Assembly: GCF_013371215.1 (NCBI RefSeq)
Contig: NZ_JABWMH010000002.1
Span: 310,001 to 374,000 of the forward strand
Direction: 5' to 3'
DNA from: Parasphingorhabdus flavimaris
GTDB lineage: Bacteria > Pseudomonadota > Alphaproteobacteria > Sphingomonadales > Sphingomonadaceae
Length of the DNA stretch: 64,000 nt
Shown piece after piece: positions 15,419 to 21,280 of the stretch (the first letter of the stretch is position 1; every line of letters begins with the position of its first letter). The notes beneath the pieces are model-generated. The model did not search any database, was not told the DNA's origin, and was given only the letters and a program-made list of their open reading frames with translations. A program made the position numbers and the translations under genes.

Positions 15419-16083
15419 TGGCTGAAGCACCAACCATCCCCGACGAAATCGAAACCCGCGCCAAATGGGGCGATTTTGCATTTACGCCTGCGAACGAGAA
15501 GCTGGCGAAATGGCAGATCGCGAAATATCCCGCTGGCCGCCAGAAATCGGCGGTCATGGCTTTGCTCGACCTGGCCCAGCGGCAGGTCGGTGCGGACACC
15601 AAAACACAAGGCTGGCTGCCGGTGCCGGTGATCGAATATGTCGCCGCCTATCTCGATATGCCTTATATGCGGGCCTATGAGGTCGCGACCTTCTACACCA
15701 TGTATAATCTCGCGCCGGTCGGGCAGTTCCATGTCCAGGTCTGCGGTACCACACCGTGCATGTTGCGCGGCAGCGACGATGTGATGGCGGCGTGCAAGAA
15801 CAAGGGGCTCAACAAGGGCAAGACCACGCCCGACGGCCTGTTCACGCTGACCGAGGTCGAGTGCATGGGCAATTGCTCCAACGCGCCGATGGTCCAGATC
15901 AACGACGATAATTACGAAGATCTCGATTATGACATCATGACCCGGATCCTCGAGGATCTGGCCGCGGGCAAGGACATCAAGGTCGGCTCGCAAATCGGCC
16001 GCAAGACCAGCGAGGCCGAGGGCGGTCCGACGAACCTGCAGGCAATGGTCAAGGAAAACCACGATTACCGGGGGGAATGGTGA
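15418..16083 (+). CDS. nuoE: NADH-quinone oxidoreductase subunit E
   Basis: 221 residues. Thioredoxin-fold subunit carrying the [2Fe-2S] cluster N1a beside NuoF. The ligands are in 'VQVCGTTPCMLRGSDDVM' (two Cys) and 'VECMGNCSNAPMVQIN' (two Cys). The N-terminal helical domain 'KWQIAKYPAGRQKSAVMALL' is typical. The C-terminus after about residue 185 is a variable tail ('GRKTSEAEGGPTNLQAM'). It overlaps nuoD by one base, and its stop overlaps the ATG of the next repeat mini-ORF. Confidence 0.96.
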   Translation: MAEAPTIPDEIETRAKWGDFAFTPANEKLAKWQIAKYPAGRQKSAVMALLDLAQRQVGADTKTQGWLPVPVIEYVAAYLDMPYMRAYEVATFYTMYNLAPVGQFHVQVCGTTPCMLRGSDDVMAACKNKGLNKGKTTPDGLFTLTEVECMGNCSNAPMVQINDDNYEDLDYDIMTRILEDLAAGKDIKVGSQIGRKTSEAEGGPTNLQAMVKENHDYRGEW

Positions 16084-16244
16084 TGAGCGCTCCATATTTT
16101 CCTCTCCGTGCGAAGCACGGGGAGGTGGCAGTCCACCGGACTGACGGAGGGGCGGCCACGCAGGCTGCCCTCTGTGGGATTTGCCCCTCGACCACGCTTC
16201 GCGCGGTTCCCCTCCCCATTGCTGCGCAACAGGGAGGATATTGA
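16083..16244 (+). repeat. GC-rich repeat (type C) inside a 53-codon mini-ORF after nuoE
   Basis: The repeat occupies about 16101-16238, from CCTCTCCGTGCGAAGCACGG to CAGGGAGGA. It contains a strong terminal hairpin (CTCCGTGCGAAGCACGGGG). A mini-ORF starts at ATG 16083 (TGATG with the nuoE stop) and ends at TGA 16242-16244, which shares a base with an ATG at 16244. The final GGGAGGA is a consensus Shine-Dalgarno for the small gene at 16249. Two more copies lie before nuoH and nuoJ and are read in the same frame. Confidence 0.75.
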
Positions 16245-16248
16245 TGCC

Positions 16249-16341
16249 ATGCAGGTCGACGGATATGCAGGCTGGATCGGGCTCACCGTGGTCATCATCG
16301 GTATCGTTGGCGGCCTCTGGGGCCGTTGGAGGAAAAAATAA
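16249..16341 (+). CDS. 30-residue single-helix membrane peptide between nuoE and nuoF
   Basis: ATG 16249 to TAA 16341 encodes a short acidic N-terminus (MQVDGYAG), one hydrophobic helix '[17 protein letters not shown]' and a basic end RWRKK, an N-out/C-in single-pass membrane peptide by the positive-inside rule. GGGAGG from the upstream repeat lies 11 nt before the ATG. The stop overlaps the nuoF ATG (TAATG) and the GGAGG used by nuoF lies inside this gene, so nuoF translation depends on it. It may be a complex I accessory peptide or simply a coupling ORF; the helix plus charge pattern favours a real product. An overlapping ATG at 16244 in another frame gives no sensible protein. Confidence 0.65.
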
Positions 16342-17663
16342 TGGCGTTTGATTTCCTTCAGGACAAGGACCGCATCTTCACCAATGTCTACGGGTTCCAG
16401 TCATGGGACCTGAAGGCGTCGCAGAAGCGCGGTGACTGGGACAATACTGCTGACATCATCAAGCGCGGCAATGACAAGATCATCGAGGAAATGAAGGCCA
16501 GCGGCCTGCGCGGTCGCGGCGGGGCGGGTTTCCCGACCGGGCTGAAATGGTCATTCATGCCCAAGGAAGCGCCGAAGGACAGCCAGGGCAATCCGCGGCC
16601 GAGCTTCCTCGTCATCAACGCCGATGAATCCGAGCCGGGCAGCTGCAAGGACCGCGAAATCCTGCGCAACGATCCGCACAAGCTGATCGAGGGCGCGCTG
16701 ATCGCCGGTTTCGCGATGCGCGCGCGCGCCGCCTATATCTACATTCGCGGCGAATATATCATGGAAGCCAAGGTCATGGAGGCGGCCGTCAAGGAAGCCT
16801 ATGACGCGGGGCTCATTGGTAAAAACGCCGCCAAGTCCGGCTATGATTTCGACGTCTTCGTCCATCGCGGCGCCGGCGCCTATATCTGCGGCGAAGAAAC
16901 CGCGATGATCGAAAGCCTCGAAGGCAAGAAGGGCCAGCCGCGCCTTAAGCCGCCGTTTCCGGCTGGTGCAGGCCTTTACGGCTGCCCGACAACGGTGAAC
17001 AATGTCGAAAGCATCGCGGTTGTGCCGACGATCCTGCGGCGCGGCGCTGCCTGGTTCGCCAGCTTTGGCCGCGAGGGCAATCACGGGACGAAACTGTTCC
17101 AGGTCTCCGGCCATGTCGACAAGCCTGCGGTGTTTGAAGAAGCGATGTCGATCCCGTTCAAGGACATGATCGAGAAACATTGCGGTGGCATCACCGGCGG
17201 CTGGGACAATCTGCTGGCGGTGATTCCGGGCGGTTCGTCGGTTCCGCTGGTCCCGGCCGAGCAGATCATGGACGCGCCGATGGATTTCGACGGTCTGAAG
17301 GACCTCGGTTCCGGTCTCGGTACGGCGGCGGTCATCGTCATGGACAAGTCGACCGACATCGTCCGCGCGATCTCGCGGCTCAGCTATTTCTACAAGCACG
17401 AAAGCTGCGGCCAATGCACGCCGTGCCGCGAGGGCACCGGCTGGATGTGGCGGGTGATGGAGAAGATGCGCGATGGCGACGCGGATATCGAGGATATCGA
17501 TACGCTCTATGAAGTGACCAAGCAGGTCGAGGGCCACACGATCTGCGCGCTCGGCGACGCGGCTGCCTGGCCGATTCAGGGCCTGATCCGGCACTTCCGT
17601 CCCGAGATGGAGCGGCGGATTAACGAGCATAAAGGCGCGGAAGTTCTGGAGGCGGCGGAGTGA
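16341..17663 (+). CDS. nuoF: NADH-quinone oxidoreductase subunit F
   Basis: 440 residues from ATG 16341. It binds NADH and FMN and holds [4Fe-4S] cluster N3. Signatures: '[16 protein letters not shown]' near residue 59 (NADH/FMN glycine-rich loop), '[16 protein letters not shown]', '[19 protein letters not shown]' and the cluster motif '[15 protein letters not shown]' near residue 355. GGAGG lies 7 nt before the ATG. Unusually, the next gene downstream is not nuoG but a small exported protein, whose GTG overlaps the nuoF stop. Confidence 0.97.
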
Positions 17664-18364
17664 TCAAGATCTCACCACTCTTTTTGTCCATCGCGATATT
17701 GTTCGCTACCGTTCCCGCAACCGCATTTGCCCAGCCGGAAATTGGATCGCGCATCGACCGGAGTCGGGAAGGCATGACCGGCTTTCATGATCCCATGGTC
17801 CAGCAATCGGCTAGAGCCGGTATCAATGCAATCGGCCGGTGCAAGGCCGAAAATAACCGATTCAGGGCCTTGAAAACGCTGGATCACAAATATCTGAGCA
17901 CTGAGCAAGCCAAGTCGCTCAACTATATCTACAAAAAAGTCGATTATGATGATCCCTGCTATATCGCCAAGAATATCCGCTTTGGCTTTTCAACGGCACC
18001 GGCAGTGGGATCCTTTTCCGAGTTCTTTCTGCTGCGTAAATATGGCGAGGATGATATCGCATCGCTGGCATCGCTGACCAATCTGGAGTGGCAGCAGGAC
18101 ATGATGAAGCCGCGCAACGCCGAAGAGCTGTTCGGTTTGTGCGTTGTCCAGTCCGGGCGCGAAAAAATCTATGCTTTGATCAATACGGTCCCGGATACTG
18201 AAGCGGAAGGAGAGGCAATCAGCGCGATCATGCCGTTGCTTGGCCCTTGTATCCGCGACGGTGCGGAAATCGCCTTTGACAAGACCTCACTGCGCGCGAT
18301 GCTGGCATTCGGCCTTTACCGGGCCGTGAGACAGCATGCCGAAATGCTGGAGGCGGCCGAGTGA
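17660..18364 (+). CDS. Exported two-module Cys protein inserted in nuo operon (first paralogue)
   Basis: 234 residues from GTG 17660, which overlaps the nuoF stop (GTGA). The N-terminus is a good signal peptide (hydrophobic '[19 protein letters not shown]', cleavage before QPE), so the product is periplasmic or surface-exposed. It contains two related modules, each with a pair of Cys: 'IGRC' x38 'C' and 'FGLC' x35 'C' (the second reads FGLCVVQ ... LLGPCIRDG ... '[16 protein letters not shown]'). The same module occurs twice in the next gene. Paired cysteines suggest disulfides in the periplasm. I do not know the family's function. The overlaps with nuoF and with the next gene indicate long co-existence with the operon. 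Confidence 0.8.
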
Positions 18365-19104
18365 TGGCCACGCCATCTTCCATGACTTCCGCTGGTGCGG
18401 TCGCGGCAGCGATTTCTGCGTGTCTTGCCAGCGGAAGCGCTGTCGATGCGAAAGAGTTCAGCACGGCCGAAATTCGCGAAGTGTCGAAAAACTATGCGGA
18501 TTGCGTGGTCAAGAGACGCTATGAACTGGCCAGAAATGCCGTAGTCTCTAACGCAAACAATGGCGAAATCGCCAAGGATTACCGAAAGCTCATCATCGGT
18601 GACTGTTTGGTCAAGGCGAATAAGGGCAATGGCGCCCGGATGAAATTTGGCGGGGACCACTATCGCTATGCGCTGGCGGAGGCGCTCATTCGGCATGATT
18701 TTCCCGAGCCATCGCTGACGACGGTCGAGGGACTAGCGAAATTGACGCATTTGCCGACGCCTACGTCGCCGCCGGATGTTACAGGCTACAAGAAAAGCAA
18801 GGCCGAGAAGGTTCTCGCCGCCTATCAGTCGAGTAAATTGATTACCTCCTTGTCGCAATATGGCGAGTGCGTGGTTCGCTTGGCTCCCGTGGACTCTCAC
18901 GCGCTGCTGATGACGGATACCGATACGGCCGGCGAAGCGGCAGCATTTGCGAAATTGCAGCCCACTCTTGGCGACTGTCTCGCCGGAGATGGCACAGTGA
19001 AATTCGGCAAATCGGTGCTTCGGGGCTCGATTGCCATCAATTATTACCGGCTGGCTTATGCGGCATCGCATCCAGTAGCCTTGACAGCGGAGGCCCAAAA
19101 CTAA
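18364..19104 (+). CDS. Exported two-module Cys protein inserted in nuo operon (second paralogue)
   Basis: 246 residues from ATG 18364 (TGATG overlap with the previous stop; a GTG 3 nt earlier is also in frame). The Ala/Ser-rich N-terminus 'AGAVAAAISACLASGSAVDA' is a probable signal peptide. Two modules follow: 'YADC' x33 'C' with 'KFGGDHYRYALAEALIR', and 'YGEC' x35 'C' with 'KFGKSVLRGSIAINYYR'. The shared pattern is CVV, about 33-38 residues, then CL or CI, Gly, KFG or FDK, and a terminal helix with YR. The stop overlaps the nuoG ATG (TAATG). Function unknown; together with its neighbour it forms a paralogous pair locked between nuoF and nuoG by codon overlaps. Confidence 0.8.
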   Translation: MATPSSMTSAGAVAAAISACLASGSAVDAKEFSTAEIREVSKNYADCVVKRRYELARNAVVSNANNGEIAKDYRKLIIGDCLVKANKGNGARMKFGGDHYRYALAEALIRHDFPEPSLTTVEGLAKLTHLPTPTSPPDVTGYKKSKAEKVLAAYQSSKLITSLSQYGECVVRLAPVDSHALLMTDTDTAGEAAAFAKLQPTLGDCLAGDGTVKFGKSVLRGSIAINYYRLAYAASHPVALTAEAQN

Positions 19105-21119
19105 TGCCTAAAGTCACCGTAGATGGCATCGAAATCGAAGTGCCGCAGGGCGCGACCGTGCTGCAGGCTGCCGAGCTTGCCGGCAAGGAAATCCCGCGTT
19201 TCTGCTACCATGAGCGCCTGAGCATCGCCGGCAATTGCCGCATGTGTCTGGTCGAGGTAAAGCCGGGACCACCGAAGCCGCAGGCGAGCTGTGCTCTGCC
19301 GGCTGCCGAAGGTCAGGAAATCCGCACCGACAGCGAGATGGTCAAGAAGGCGCGCGAAGGGGTGATGGAATTTCTCCTGATCAACCATCCGCTCGATTGC
19401 CCGATTTGCGACCAGGGCGGCGAATGCGATCTTCAGGATCAGGCCATGGCCTATGGCAAGGGAGGCTCGCGCTACGAAGAGAATAAGCGCGCGGTGACCG
19501 AGAAATATATGGGGCCGATCGTCAAGACCGCGATGACCCGCTGCATCCACTGCACGCGCTGCGTGCGGTTCAGCGAGGAAGTCGCCGGCGTCGAGGAAAT
19601 CGGCGCGATTGGCCGCGGCGAGGGGATGGAGATTACCTCCTATCTCGAAGGCGCGGTGCACAGCGAGCTGAGCGGCAATGTCGTTGACCTCTGCCCGGTC
19701 GGTGCCTTGACCAGCAAGCCTTACGCTTTCGAAGCGCGTCCGTGGGAATTGACCAAGACGCTCGGCATTGACGTGATGGACGGTGTCGGCACGAATATCC
19801 GGATCGATTCACGCGGCCGCGAAGTGCTGCGCGCGCTGCCGCGGGTCAATGATGACGTGAACGAGGAATGGGCAACCGACAAGACCCGCCACGCGATCGA
19901 CGGCCTGATGAAGCGCCGTCTCGACAAGCCTTATGTGCGCAAGAACGGCAAGCTGGAAGAAGCAAGCTGGAACGAAGCATTCCAGGCGATTGCCGATGTG
20001 AACGCAGGCAGCTCGGTTGCTGCGATCGCCGGTGATCTGGTCGATTGCGAGACCATGTACGCCGCGAAAAAACTGCTCAAGTCGATGAAGTCGGACATGC
20101 TGGAAGGCCGTCAGACTGGCCTGTCTTATGATGTTTCCAATCTCGCTGCGGTGAACTTCAATTCTACCATCGCCGGTATCGAGGACGCGGACGTGATCCT
20201 GCTGGTCTCTACCAACCCGCGCTGGGAAGCGTCGCTGGTCAACACCCGCATCCGCAAGGCTGTGCGCCAGGGCGGCGCGAAAGTCTTCGGCATCGGTCCG
20301 GAAGCGGACCAGACCTACAAGGTCGAATGGCTGGGCGACGATATGGGGCTGTTGGCGAAGCTGCCGAAAGCGGCTGCCGATGCGCTGAAAGCTGCGGAGA
20401 AGCCGGCGATCATACTGGGCGGCGGCGCATTGAGCGTCGAGGGCGCGCATGGCGCGGCGCTCAAGCTGGCGAGCAAGTACAAGCTGATCCGCGATGGCTG
20501 GAACGGCTTCAACGTCCTGCATATAGGGGCCTCGCGCACCGGCGGACTGATGCTCGGCTATGCCTATGACGGCGGGATCAAGGCAATTGCAGCGAAGAAG
20601 CCGAAACTGCTGTTCGCGCTCGGTGCGGACGAAATGAATTATGAAGCGTTCAAGGACAGTTTCAAGGTGTTCATCGGCCATCATGGCGATGCCGGTGCCC
20701 ATGCGGCGGACGTGATCCTGCCGGGTGCGGCCTATACCGAGAAAAACGGCACTTATGTCAATCTGGAAGGCCGGGTGCAGCGTTCGAACAAGGCGATTTT
20801 CGCGCCGGGTGATGCGCGCGAGGACTGGAGCATCCTGCGGGCGCTGTCCGACGTCATGGGCAAGACCCTGCCGTTCGACAGTTTCGAGGAACTGCGCACG
20901 AAAATGGCGAAGGATCATCCGGAACTTGCACAAGAAGGTCTGGTCGCGTTCGACTGGGCGCCGCCGACCGGCTTGCCCGACAAGCCAACTGGGCAGGGCG
21001 TCCATCCGATCAAGGATTTCTATCTGACCAACAGCATCGCCCGAGCCAGCGCGACGATGCAGCGCTGTTCCGCGGAATTGCTGCATGCCGATGATGAATT
21101 GATGGAGGCGGCGGAGTGA
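19104..21119 (+). CDS. nuoG: NADH-quinone oxidoreductase subunit G
   Basis: 671 residues from ATG 19104. The 75-kDa subunit carrying clusters N1b, N4 and N5. The ferredoxin-like N-domain has '[19 protein letters not shown]' (N1b ligands) and a final Cys in 'QASCALPA'; '[18 protein letters not shown]' and '[12 protein letters not shown]' give N5/N4 ligands; '[19 protein letters not shown]' follows. The remainder is the molybdopterin-oxidoreductase-like domain without its cofactor, as is usual. Length is normal for alphaproteobacteria. The upstream gene overlaps by one base; downstream is a type C repeat. Confidence 0.96.
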
Positions 21120-21280
21120 TACAAACTGCTACCTTTTTTCCTCCTTGTGCGAAGCACGGGGAGGGGGACCATCCGCAGGATGGTGGAGGGGCATATCGCC
21201 TCCTCACTTCGTTCGGCCCCTCCGTCACGCCTTCGGCGCGCCACCTCCCCAAAGCTGCGCTTCAGGGAGGAAATATCTGA
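21116..21280 (+). repeat. GC-rich repeat (type C) inside a 54-codon mini-ORF between nuoG and nuoH
   Basis: The repeat occupies about 21140-21271: CCTCCTTGTGCGAAGCACGG at the left, CAGGGAGGA at the right, with internal hairpin CCATCCGCAGGATGG. A GTG at 21116, overlapping the nuoG stop, opens a 54-codon frame through the whole element, ending at TGA 21278-21280, which overlaps the nuoH ATG. The GGGAGG at the repeat's end lies 9 nt before that ATG and is the only visible ribosome binding site of nuoH. Confidence 0.75.

What the first reader, a model, noticed from the sequence alone, without database searches (positions are those of the whole stretch)
17660..19104. Two exported, paralogous Cys-module proteins locked between nuoF and nuoG
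Both proteins have signal peptides and two modules each with a Cys pair 33-38 residues apart (four modules in all). They are joined to nuoF, to each other and to nuoG by one- to four-base codon overlaps. Complex I has no known periplasmic subunit of this kind in bacteria, yet their expression is tied to two matrix-arm subunits. They could be assembly or stress factors, or passengers.
Basis: partly seen in the sequence, partly recalled or inferred. Interest (0 to 1): 0.7.

Follow-up and report, generated by a model that had tools for sequence, protein, structure and literature searches.

The report
Exported passenger proteins between nuoF and nuoG
Two secreted-looking proteins of a family not named in the databases searched sit inside the respiratory complex I operon of a sphingomonad; they look like swappable passengers of a junction where nearly every insert stays in a reading frame running from nuoF into nuoG, rather than parts of complex I.

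Summary
In detail: two signal-like, four-Cys ORFs lie between nuoF and nuoG with overlaps of 4, 4 and 1 bases. They belong to a family with no convincing Pfam, NCBIfam, PADLOC or PDB match. Each protein is two homologous four-helix modules with one Cys pair each. Apart from one weak partial match, the family was found only in the window's taxonomic family (Sphingomonadaceae-type): 43 of 99 genomes there, 37 of those at nuoF|nuoG.

The link to complex I looks positional, not structural. Most congeners seen (19 of 30) lack the family at this junction, and its similarity is uncorrelated with nuoF similarity over 79 genomes. nuoF stretches 99-100% alike can flank members only 18-26% alike. The same junction also carries unrelated genes, repeat DNA, or nothing.

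Nearly every insert there, repeats included, is bridged by open frames from nuoF's stop to nuoG's start: 91 of 93, against 10.4 expected after shuffling. The overlaps are therefore a general rule of this junction. Best reading: a cassette site probably held by translational coupling, whose main cargo is a variable exported protein. The cargo's molecular role is unknown; a variable periplasmic binding or immunity-like role is my guess.

The parts
16341..17663 (+). nuoF (upstream flank), ATG at 16341
   Evidence: Open frame; relatives' nuoF 70-100% identical in the loci
17660..18364 (+). ORF A, signal-like two-module four-Cys protein, GTG start, 234 aa
   Evidence: 4-nt overlap with nuoF stop; AF2 pLDDT 81.9, pTM 0.76, all helical
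17660..17731 (+). Likely signal peptide of A (about residues 1-24)
   Evidence: Hydropathy and A-x-A rule; cut point is inference, no SignalP
17801..18064 (+). Module 1 of A (residues about 48-135; Cys 61 and 100)
18110..18346 (+). Module 2 of A (residues about 151-229; Cys 161 and 197)
18361..19104 (+). ORF B, paralogous protein, GTG start (ATG at 18364 also possible), 247 aa
   Evidence: AF2 pLDDT 85.1, pTM 0.81, all helical
18361..18450 (+). Weak signal-peptide-like N-terminus of B (about residues 1-30, no K/R before the hydrophobic core)
18463..18699 (+). Module 1 of B (residues about 35-113; Cys 48 and 82)
   Evidence: Helices, Cys; limits are inference
18793..19068 (+). Module 2 of B (residues about 145-236; Cys 170 and 206)
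   Evidence: Helices, Cys; limits are inference
19104..21119 (+). nuoG (downstream flank); its ATG overlaps B's stop by 1 nt
16077..16341 (+). nuoE|nuoF gap, a repeat-like stretch covered by overlapping small ORFs (16077-16244 and 16108-16341), same read-through pattern
21116..21280 (+). nuoG|nuoH gap, a repeat-like stretch covered by one 54-aa ORF that overlaps both neighbours

Best explanation
A and B are passengers with respect to complex I. They belong to a so far undescribed exported family: two homologous four-helix modules per protein, probably one disulfide per module in the periplasm. The family is the main cargo of a variable cassette site between nuoF and nuoG. At this site nuoG translation probably depends on ribosomes arriving from upstream, so an insert is kept as a reading frame that starts at nuoF's stop and ends at nuoG's start. 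This would give cargo steady co-expression with the respiratory chain and explains the 1- to 4-base overlaps. Cargo copies duplicate, are lost and are replaced by other types independently of the complex I core. Shown: place, module duplication, signal-like N-termini, the read-through rule, turnover uncoupled from nuoF. Inferred: translational coupling itself, periplasmic location, disulfides, co-expression, and a role as variable envelope binding proteins (immunity- or defence-like is my first guess, about 20-25%).
For: Of 43 carriers among 99 family genomes, 37 have the family at nuoF|nuoG. 130 distinct junctions: 51 hold family members, 2 more hold members but were not bridged, 41 hold other cargo, 36 hold nothing. 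Inserts of 60-3000 bp are bridged by chained ORFs in 91 of 93, 10.4 expected after shuffling. For short inserts the coupling frame is open in 27 of 28, against 6 of 56 other forward frames and 10 of 84 reverse frames. The 9 repeat-marked short inserts are all open in that frame and in none of their 18 other forward frames. Family identity is uncorrelated with nuoF identity over 79 genomes (Spearman 0.03; 283 of 999 permutations reach it); for the 18 pairs with nuoF >= 97% the median best family identity is 0.26. Both copies kept in the pair G149/G210 give dN/dS 0.29, against 0.033 for nuoF, so selection is purifying but looser. 58 of 59 members have signal-like N-termini.
Against: The tie to one junction is stronger than random cargo would give: 37 of 43 carriers, and only 1 of 43 at nuoG|nuoH. 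Three genomes (one genus) with no nuoF or nuoG match also lack the family. nuoD|nuoE, nuoE|nuoF and nuoG|nuoH show the same read-through, so the rule is not special to this site. No expression or localisation data. Neither the shuffle null nor the counts correct for relatedness among genomes.
Confidence: 0.65

Rival explanations
1. Periplasmic accessory or assembly factors of complex I, lineage-specific, working like the disulfide-held helical subunits on the intermembrane-space face of mitochondrial complex I.
For: 37 of 43 carriers keep the gene at nuoF|nuoG and one at nuoG|nuoH; signal-like, helical, Cys-paired; absent from the three genomes without nuoF or nuoG matches; purifying selection.
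Against: No match in 56 of 99 family genomes and none at the junction in 19 of 30 congeners; no correlation with nuoF divergence; G067 has a member but no nuoF or nuoG match (91% complete). The extra subunits of the Paracoccus enzyme are named as NDUFS4, NDUFS6, NDUFA12 and a methyltransferase (PMC11522691, abstract and passages).
Confidence: 0.15
2. Variable periplasmic immunity or defence proteins that neutralise rivals' toxins or phage proteins, parked in a well-expressed operon. (A special case of the passenger reading.)
For: Signal-like, Cys-paired helical modules; 1-4 copies per site; different types at the same site in close relatives.
Against: No PADLOC match and no immunity family among Pfam or NCBIfam hits; the Rap1a profile has no match in the own genome. 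In the ORF lists of 8 stray loci I recognised no toxin partner by eye.
Confidence: 0.2
3. Little or no specific function: inserts are kept open only because nuoG translation needs it, and the family is a fast-drifting spacer.
For: Repeat-derived inserts keep an open frame too; A and B have lower GC3 (0.64, 0.63) than nuoF and nuoG (0.80, 0.76).
Against: Four Cys columns kept in 107 of 107 member regions, duplicated module architecture and dN/dS 0.29 show selection on the protein.
Confidence: 0.1

Closest known systems
Unidentified reading frames within alphaproteobacterial nuo operons (recalled for Paracoccus; my paper search and passage gave no text on it)
   Same: Extra genes lie between nuo genes
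   Different: Here one signal-like family dominates one junction, and nearly all inserts are bridged by reading frames
NDUFA8/NDUFS5-type disulfide helical subunits on the intermembrane-space face of complex I (type recalled; passages of PMC11522691 mention both as mammalian subunits absent from the Paracoccus enzyme)
   Same: Likely on the same side of the membrane, helical, Cys-paired
   Different: No CX9C spacing; Cys partners far further apart; no evidence of binding complex I
Rap1a/Tai4-type periplasmic immunity proteins of type VI secretion (features recalled)
   Same: Small exported helical proteins with conserved Cys, more than one copy, fast divergence
   Different: No profile match found; no linked effector recognised
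Palindromic repeats that insert in frame into genes (Rickettsia palindromic elements, recalled)
   Same: Repeat DNA carried as an open frame
   Different: Here the repeat forms a separate small ORF overlapping both neighbours

Membership tests
Complex I accessory subunit | Present wherever the host lineage has complex I | tested here: not met
   43 of 99 family genomes have a member, while 191 of 199 have nuoG
Complex I accessory subunit | Divergence follows the core subunits | tested here: not met
   Spearman 0.03 against nuoF over 79 genomes, 283 of 999 permutations reach it
Complex I accessory subunit | Physically bound to the complex | not testable with these tools
   Needs purification and mass spectrometry
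CHCH / twin CX9C proteins | CX9C Cys spacing (definition recalled) | tested here: not met
   In A and B no two Cys are 10 positions apart; module partners are 39, 36, 34 and 36 apart
T6SS immunity proteins (Rap1a, Tai4) | Match to the family profile | tested here: inconclusive
   Rap1a (PF18602): no match in the own genome at E <= 1 and none among the 37 members' Pfam hits at E <= 1. Tai4: not listed, but I did not check that a model is in the library
T6SS immunity proteins (Rap1a, Tai4) | Gene next to its effector | tested here: inconclusive
   Stray loci read by eye only
Any solved fold | Clear structural match in PDB | tested here: inconclusive
   Foldseek 0 hits at E <= 1e-3 for A and B; VIA best Z 3.5 and 3.0

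The most novel reading that the evidence does not exclude
nuoF|nuoG is a translation-locked cargo port and gene nursery. Because ribosomes must reach nuoG from nuoF, whatever lands there is forced into a continuous frame, so even repeat DNA becomes a small translated ORF. A hypervariable exported family exploits the port, and its cassettes are exchanged between strains by recombination in the well-conserved nuo flanks.
Probability: 0.35. Interest if true: 0.78.

Novelty: new variant of a known kind. Interest (0 to 1): 0.58.

Why it matters
It yields a widespread signal-like protein family that none of the libraries searched names, and a testable rule: inserts between nuoF and nuoG stay open from stop to start. 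If coupling is the cause, a conserved operon acts as a filter that makes new DNA be translated, a concrete route to new genes. It also warns that tight overlap with complex I genes is not evidence of a new complex I subunit.

Tried and rejected
Family libraries: in Pfam, NCBIfam, PADLOC and PHROGs no family was shared by more than two of 37 members. The best weak hit, RlmH at E 4.6e-5 in L081, scores 23.6 bits against a curated cut-off of 169; Maf-like (L112, 18.8 against 300) and LipL32 (L093, 16.8 against 300) are similar; I took them as chance (which re-scanned 20 of the 37). PDB sequence search with the profile: 0 at E <= 10. Foldseek and VIA: nothing usable; this does not show a new fold.

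Homologues away from nuo: a second profile made from five stray copies matched 8 of 99 genomes. In three of them (G081, G083, G145) the matches were the strays themselves; in the other five (G073, G082, G120, G128, G146) they were weaker matches to copies at nuoF|nuoG. So no large hidden family elsewhere appeared at that sensitivity. Outside the taxonomic family: the 18 of 118 order genomes with a match are all listed as the window's family. In the class 3 of 240 matched: the own genome, one same-family genome, and one weak 57-position match in another family, E 7.5e-5, not followed up. Thirty named alphaproteobacterial loci had none.

Internal promoters and terminators at the junction: no plus-strand site; the minus-strand ones were near shuffle level.

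Synonymous divergence: 5 of 8 pairs had saturated sites in the family gene and gave no ratio; G024/G028 gave 0.076 but at dS 0.02.

Papers: searches listed nothing on these genes that I recognised from titles and abstracts. PMC8357420's 'between nuoF and nuoG' passage is about protein interfaces. Most papers were seen only as search listings; PMC11522691, PMC8115037, PMC9696053 and PMC8357420 as passages.

Dropped rows: alignment A1 has 37 of the 42 proteins; left out were a near duplicate (L034), two with doubtful starts (L067, L120 first copy) and two divergent or odd ones (L056, L097). L115 had no nuoF in reach. L033 and L038 were too short to show nuoG and were left out; their genomes hold two members each. 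Identical inserts were counted once in the bridging and class counts, but not in the nuoF stop-codon counts.

Full report
What is there. The two ORFs, their coordinates, overlaps and Cys pairs are as described. N-termini of 58 of 59 family members look signal-like by a simple hydropathy rule, B's weakly.

The family. A profile seeded with A and B and iterated picked up 42 proteins at the nuoF|nuoG junction. In an alignment of 37 of them the four Cys columns are invariant and nothing else is, at 22% mean column identity; in a wider set the Cys are kept in 107 of 107 member regions. The two halves of the protein are homologous to each other (hhalign 98.9, E 3.6e-17, against E 0.056 and 0.076 for reversed controls). 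AlphaFold models are helical and fairly confident (pLDDT 81.9 and 85.1); no solved structure matched clearly, which does not prove a new fold. No PDB or PADLOC match was found and no convincing Pfam or NCBIfam one; the weak ones are far under the curated cut-offs where I looked.

Where it occurs. Among 99 genomes of the window's family, 43 (41 of 94 genera) have a match. By coordinates and flanking genes, 37 carry it at nuoF|nuoG, one at nuoG|nuoH (G123), and five only elsewhere (G067, G083, G087, G098, G145); G131, G068 and G081 also have extra copies elsewhere. One of the 37 (G144) is a short remnant with a stop. In the order sample 18 of 118 genomes matched, all listed as the same family; in the class sample 3 of 240, one of them a weak match in another family. 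Named carriers include Sphingobium sp. SYK-6 and Novosphingobium and Sphingomonas strains.

Close relatives. In the window's genus 31 of 32 genomes gave a nuoF match, and 30 junction loci were fetched. Eleven of the 30 hold family members. A's own type is in four genomes (G000, G019, G020, G009; E <= 2e-31), and B's nearest relatives are in other genera at 36%. The remaining 19 have no insert or other, mostly small, ORFs.

Independent turnover. Over 79 genomes the best-copy identity of the family shows no relation to the identity of the nuoF stretch in reach (Spearman 0.03; 283 of 999 permutations as high). For the 18 pairs with nuoF >= 97% the best family identity ranges from 0.18 to 1.00, with median 0.26. 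Some close pairs are near identical (G003/G024 0.99), some intermediate (G019/G020 0.41), many as different as strangers (G000/G028 0.18). This points to replacement or differential loss of types more than to steady fast change. Where two copies were retained (G149/G210) dN/dS is 0.29 for each, against 0.033 for nuoF. In 5 of the 8 pairs tried, synonymous sites were saturated and gave no ratio.

The junction rule. 130 distinct junctions fall into 51 with family members, 2 more with members but not bridged, 36 without insert and 41 with other cargo: 12 soluble, 10 repeat-derived, 10 membrane, 5 signal-like with Cys and 4 mixed (labels by simple motif and hydropathy rules). Of 93 distinct inserts of 60-3000 bp, 91 are bridged by chained ORFs (10.4 expected after shuffling); of 28 short ones, 28 (7.3 expected). 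The frame that begins at nuoF's overlapping (A/G)TGA is open in 27 of 28 short inserts, other forward frames in 6 of 56, reverse frames in 10 of 84. nuoF ends (A/G)TGA at 84 of 95 junctions with insert, and (A/G)TAA at 35 of 37 without. The first ORF starts at -4 in 82 of 92 bridged junctions. nuoD|nuoE (30 of 31), nuoE|nuoF (24 of 26) and nuoG|nuoH (14 of 15) behave alike, but nuoH|nuoI (1 of 6) and nuoI|nuoJ (12 of 18) do less so or not (nuoI starts are uncertain). The window itself shows it at nuoE|nuoF and nuoG|nuoH. Genomes are related, so these counts are not independent events.

Other junctions as control. In 50 named loci (L193-L242, most titled Sphingomonadales or its genera, a few unclassified alphaproteobacterial MAGs), gaps over 450 bp occur at nuoF|nuoG in 18 of 46, nuoD|nuoE 12 of 42, nuoE|nuoF 1 of 42, nuoG|nuoH 0 of 50, nuoH|nuoI 2 of 47, nuoI|nuoJ 2 of 47 and nuoJ|nuoK 0 of 45. 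So two junctions take long inserts, and this family uses nearly only one of them.

Verdict. The tight overlaps follow from a rule of this part of the operon, most simply translational coupling (inferred). A and B are best read as exported passengers under loose purifying selection. A complex I role is less likely but not excluded. Evidence on that side: the family is strongly tied to this site, and three genomes of one genus without nuoF or nuoG matches lack it; on the other, G067 has a member without either gene, in a 91% complete assembly.

Change at the second look.

Noticed in passing
window 21116-21280: The nuoG|nuoH gap is a repeat-like stretch read through by one 54-aa ORF overlapping both genes.
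   Followed up: partly
L032, L035, L043, L046, L060, L113, L114, L199, L215: A palindrome-like repeat (peptide marks NLFQD, PELVSGS, LKQVQHD) fills the nuoF|nuoG junction; among forward frames only the coupling frame is open. That it is palindromic is a guess from the peptides, not tested.
   Followed up: partly
L071, L082, L093, L209: A different cargo of about 135 aa at nuoF|nuoG, alone or beside a family member, resembling retropepsin-like aspartyl proteases (motif recalled, not searched).
   Followed up: no
L196, L200, L202, L207, L217, L221, L227, L229: nuoD|nuoE of several sphingomonads carries a small protein that looks SnoaL/NTF2-like (label recalled).
   Followed up: no
L156:3679-7251, L155:4088-4951: A distant four-Cys subfamily away from nuo, four tandem copies in one genome.
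   Followed up: partly
L249, L267, L269, L271: Other alphaproteobacteria also have nuoF|nuoG inserts: a repeat-derived ORF, lipoprotein-like proteins and a possible toxin-antitoxin-like pair (labels recalled).
   Followed up: no
L102, L037, L211, L044: Shorter signal-like Cys proteins at the same junction may be one-module or remote relatives (E 0.004 and 0.009 for L102 and L037).
   Followed up: no
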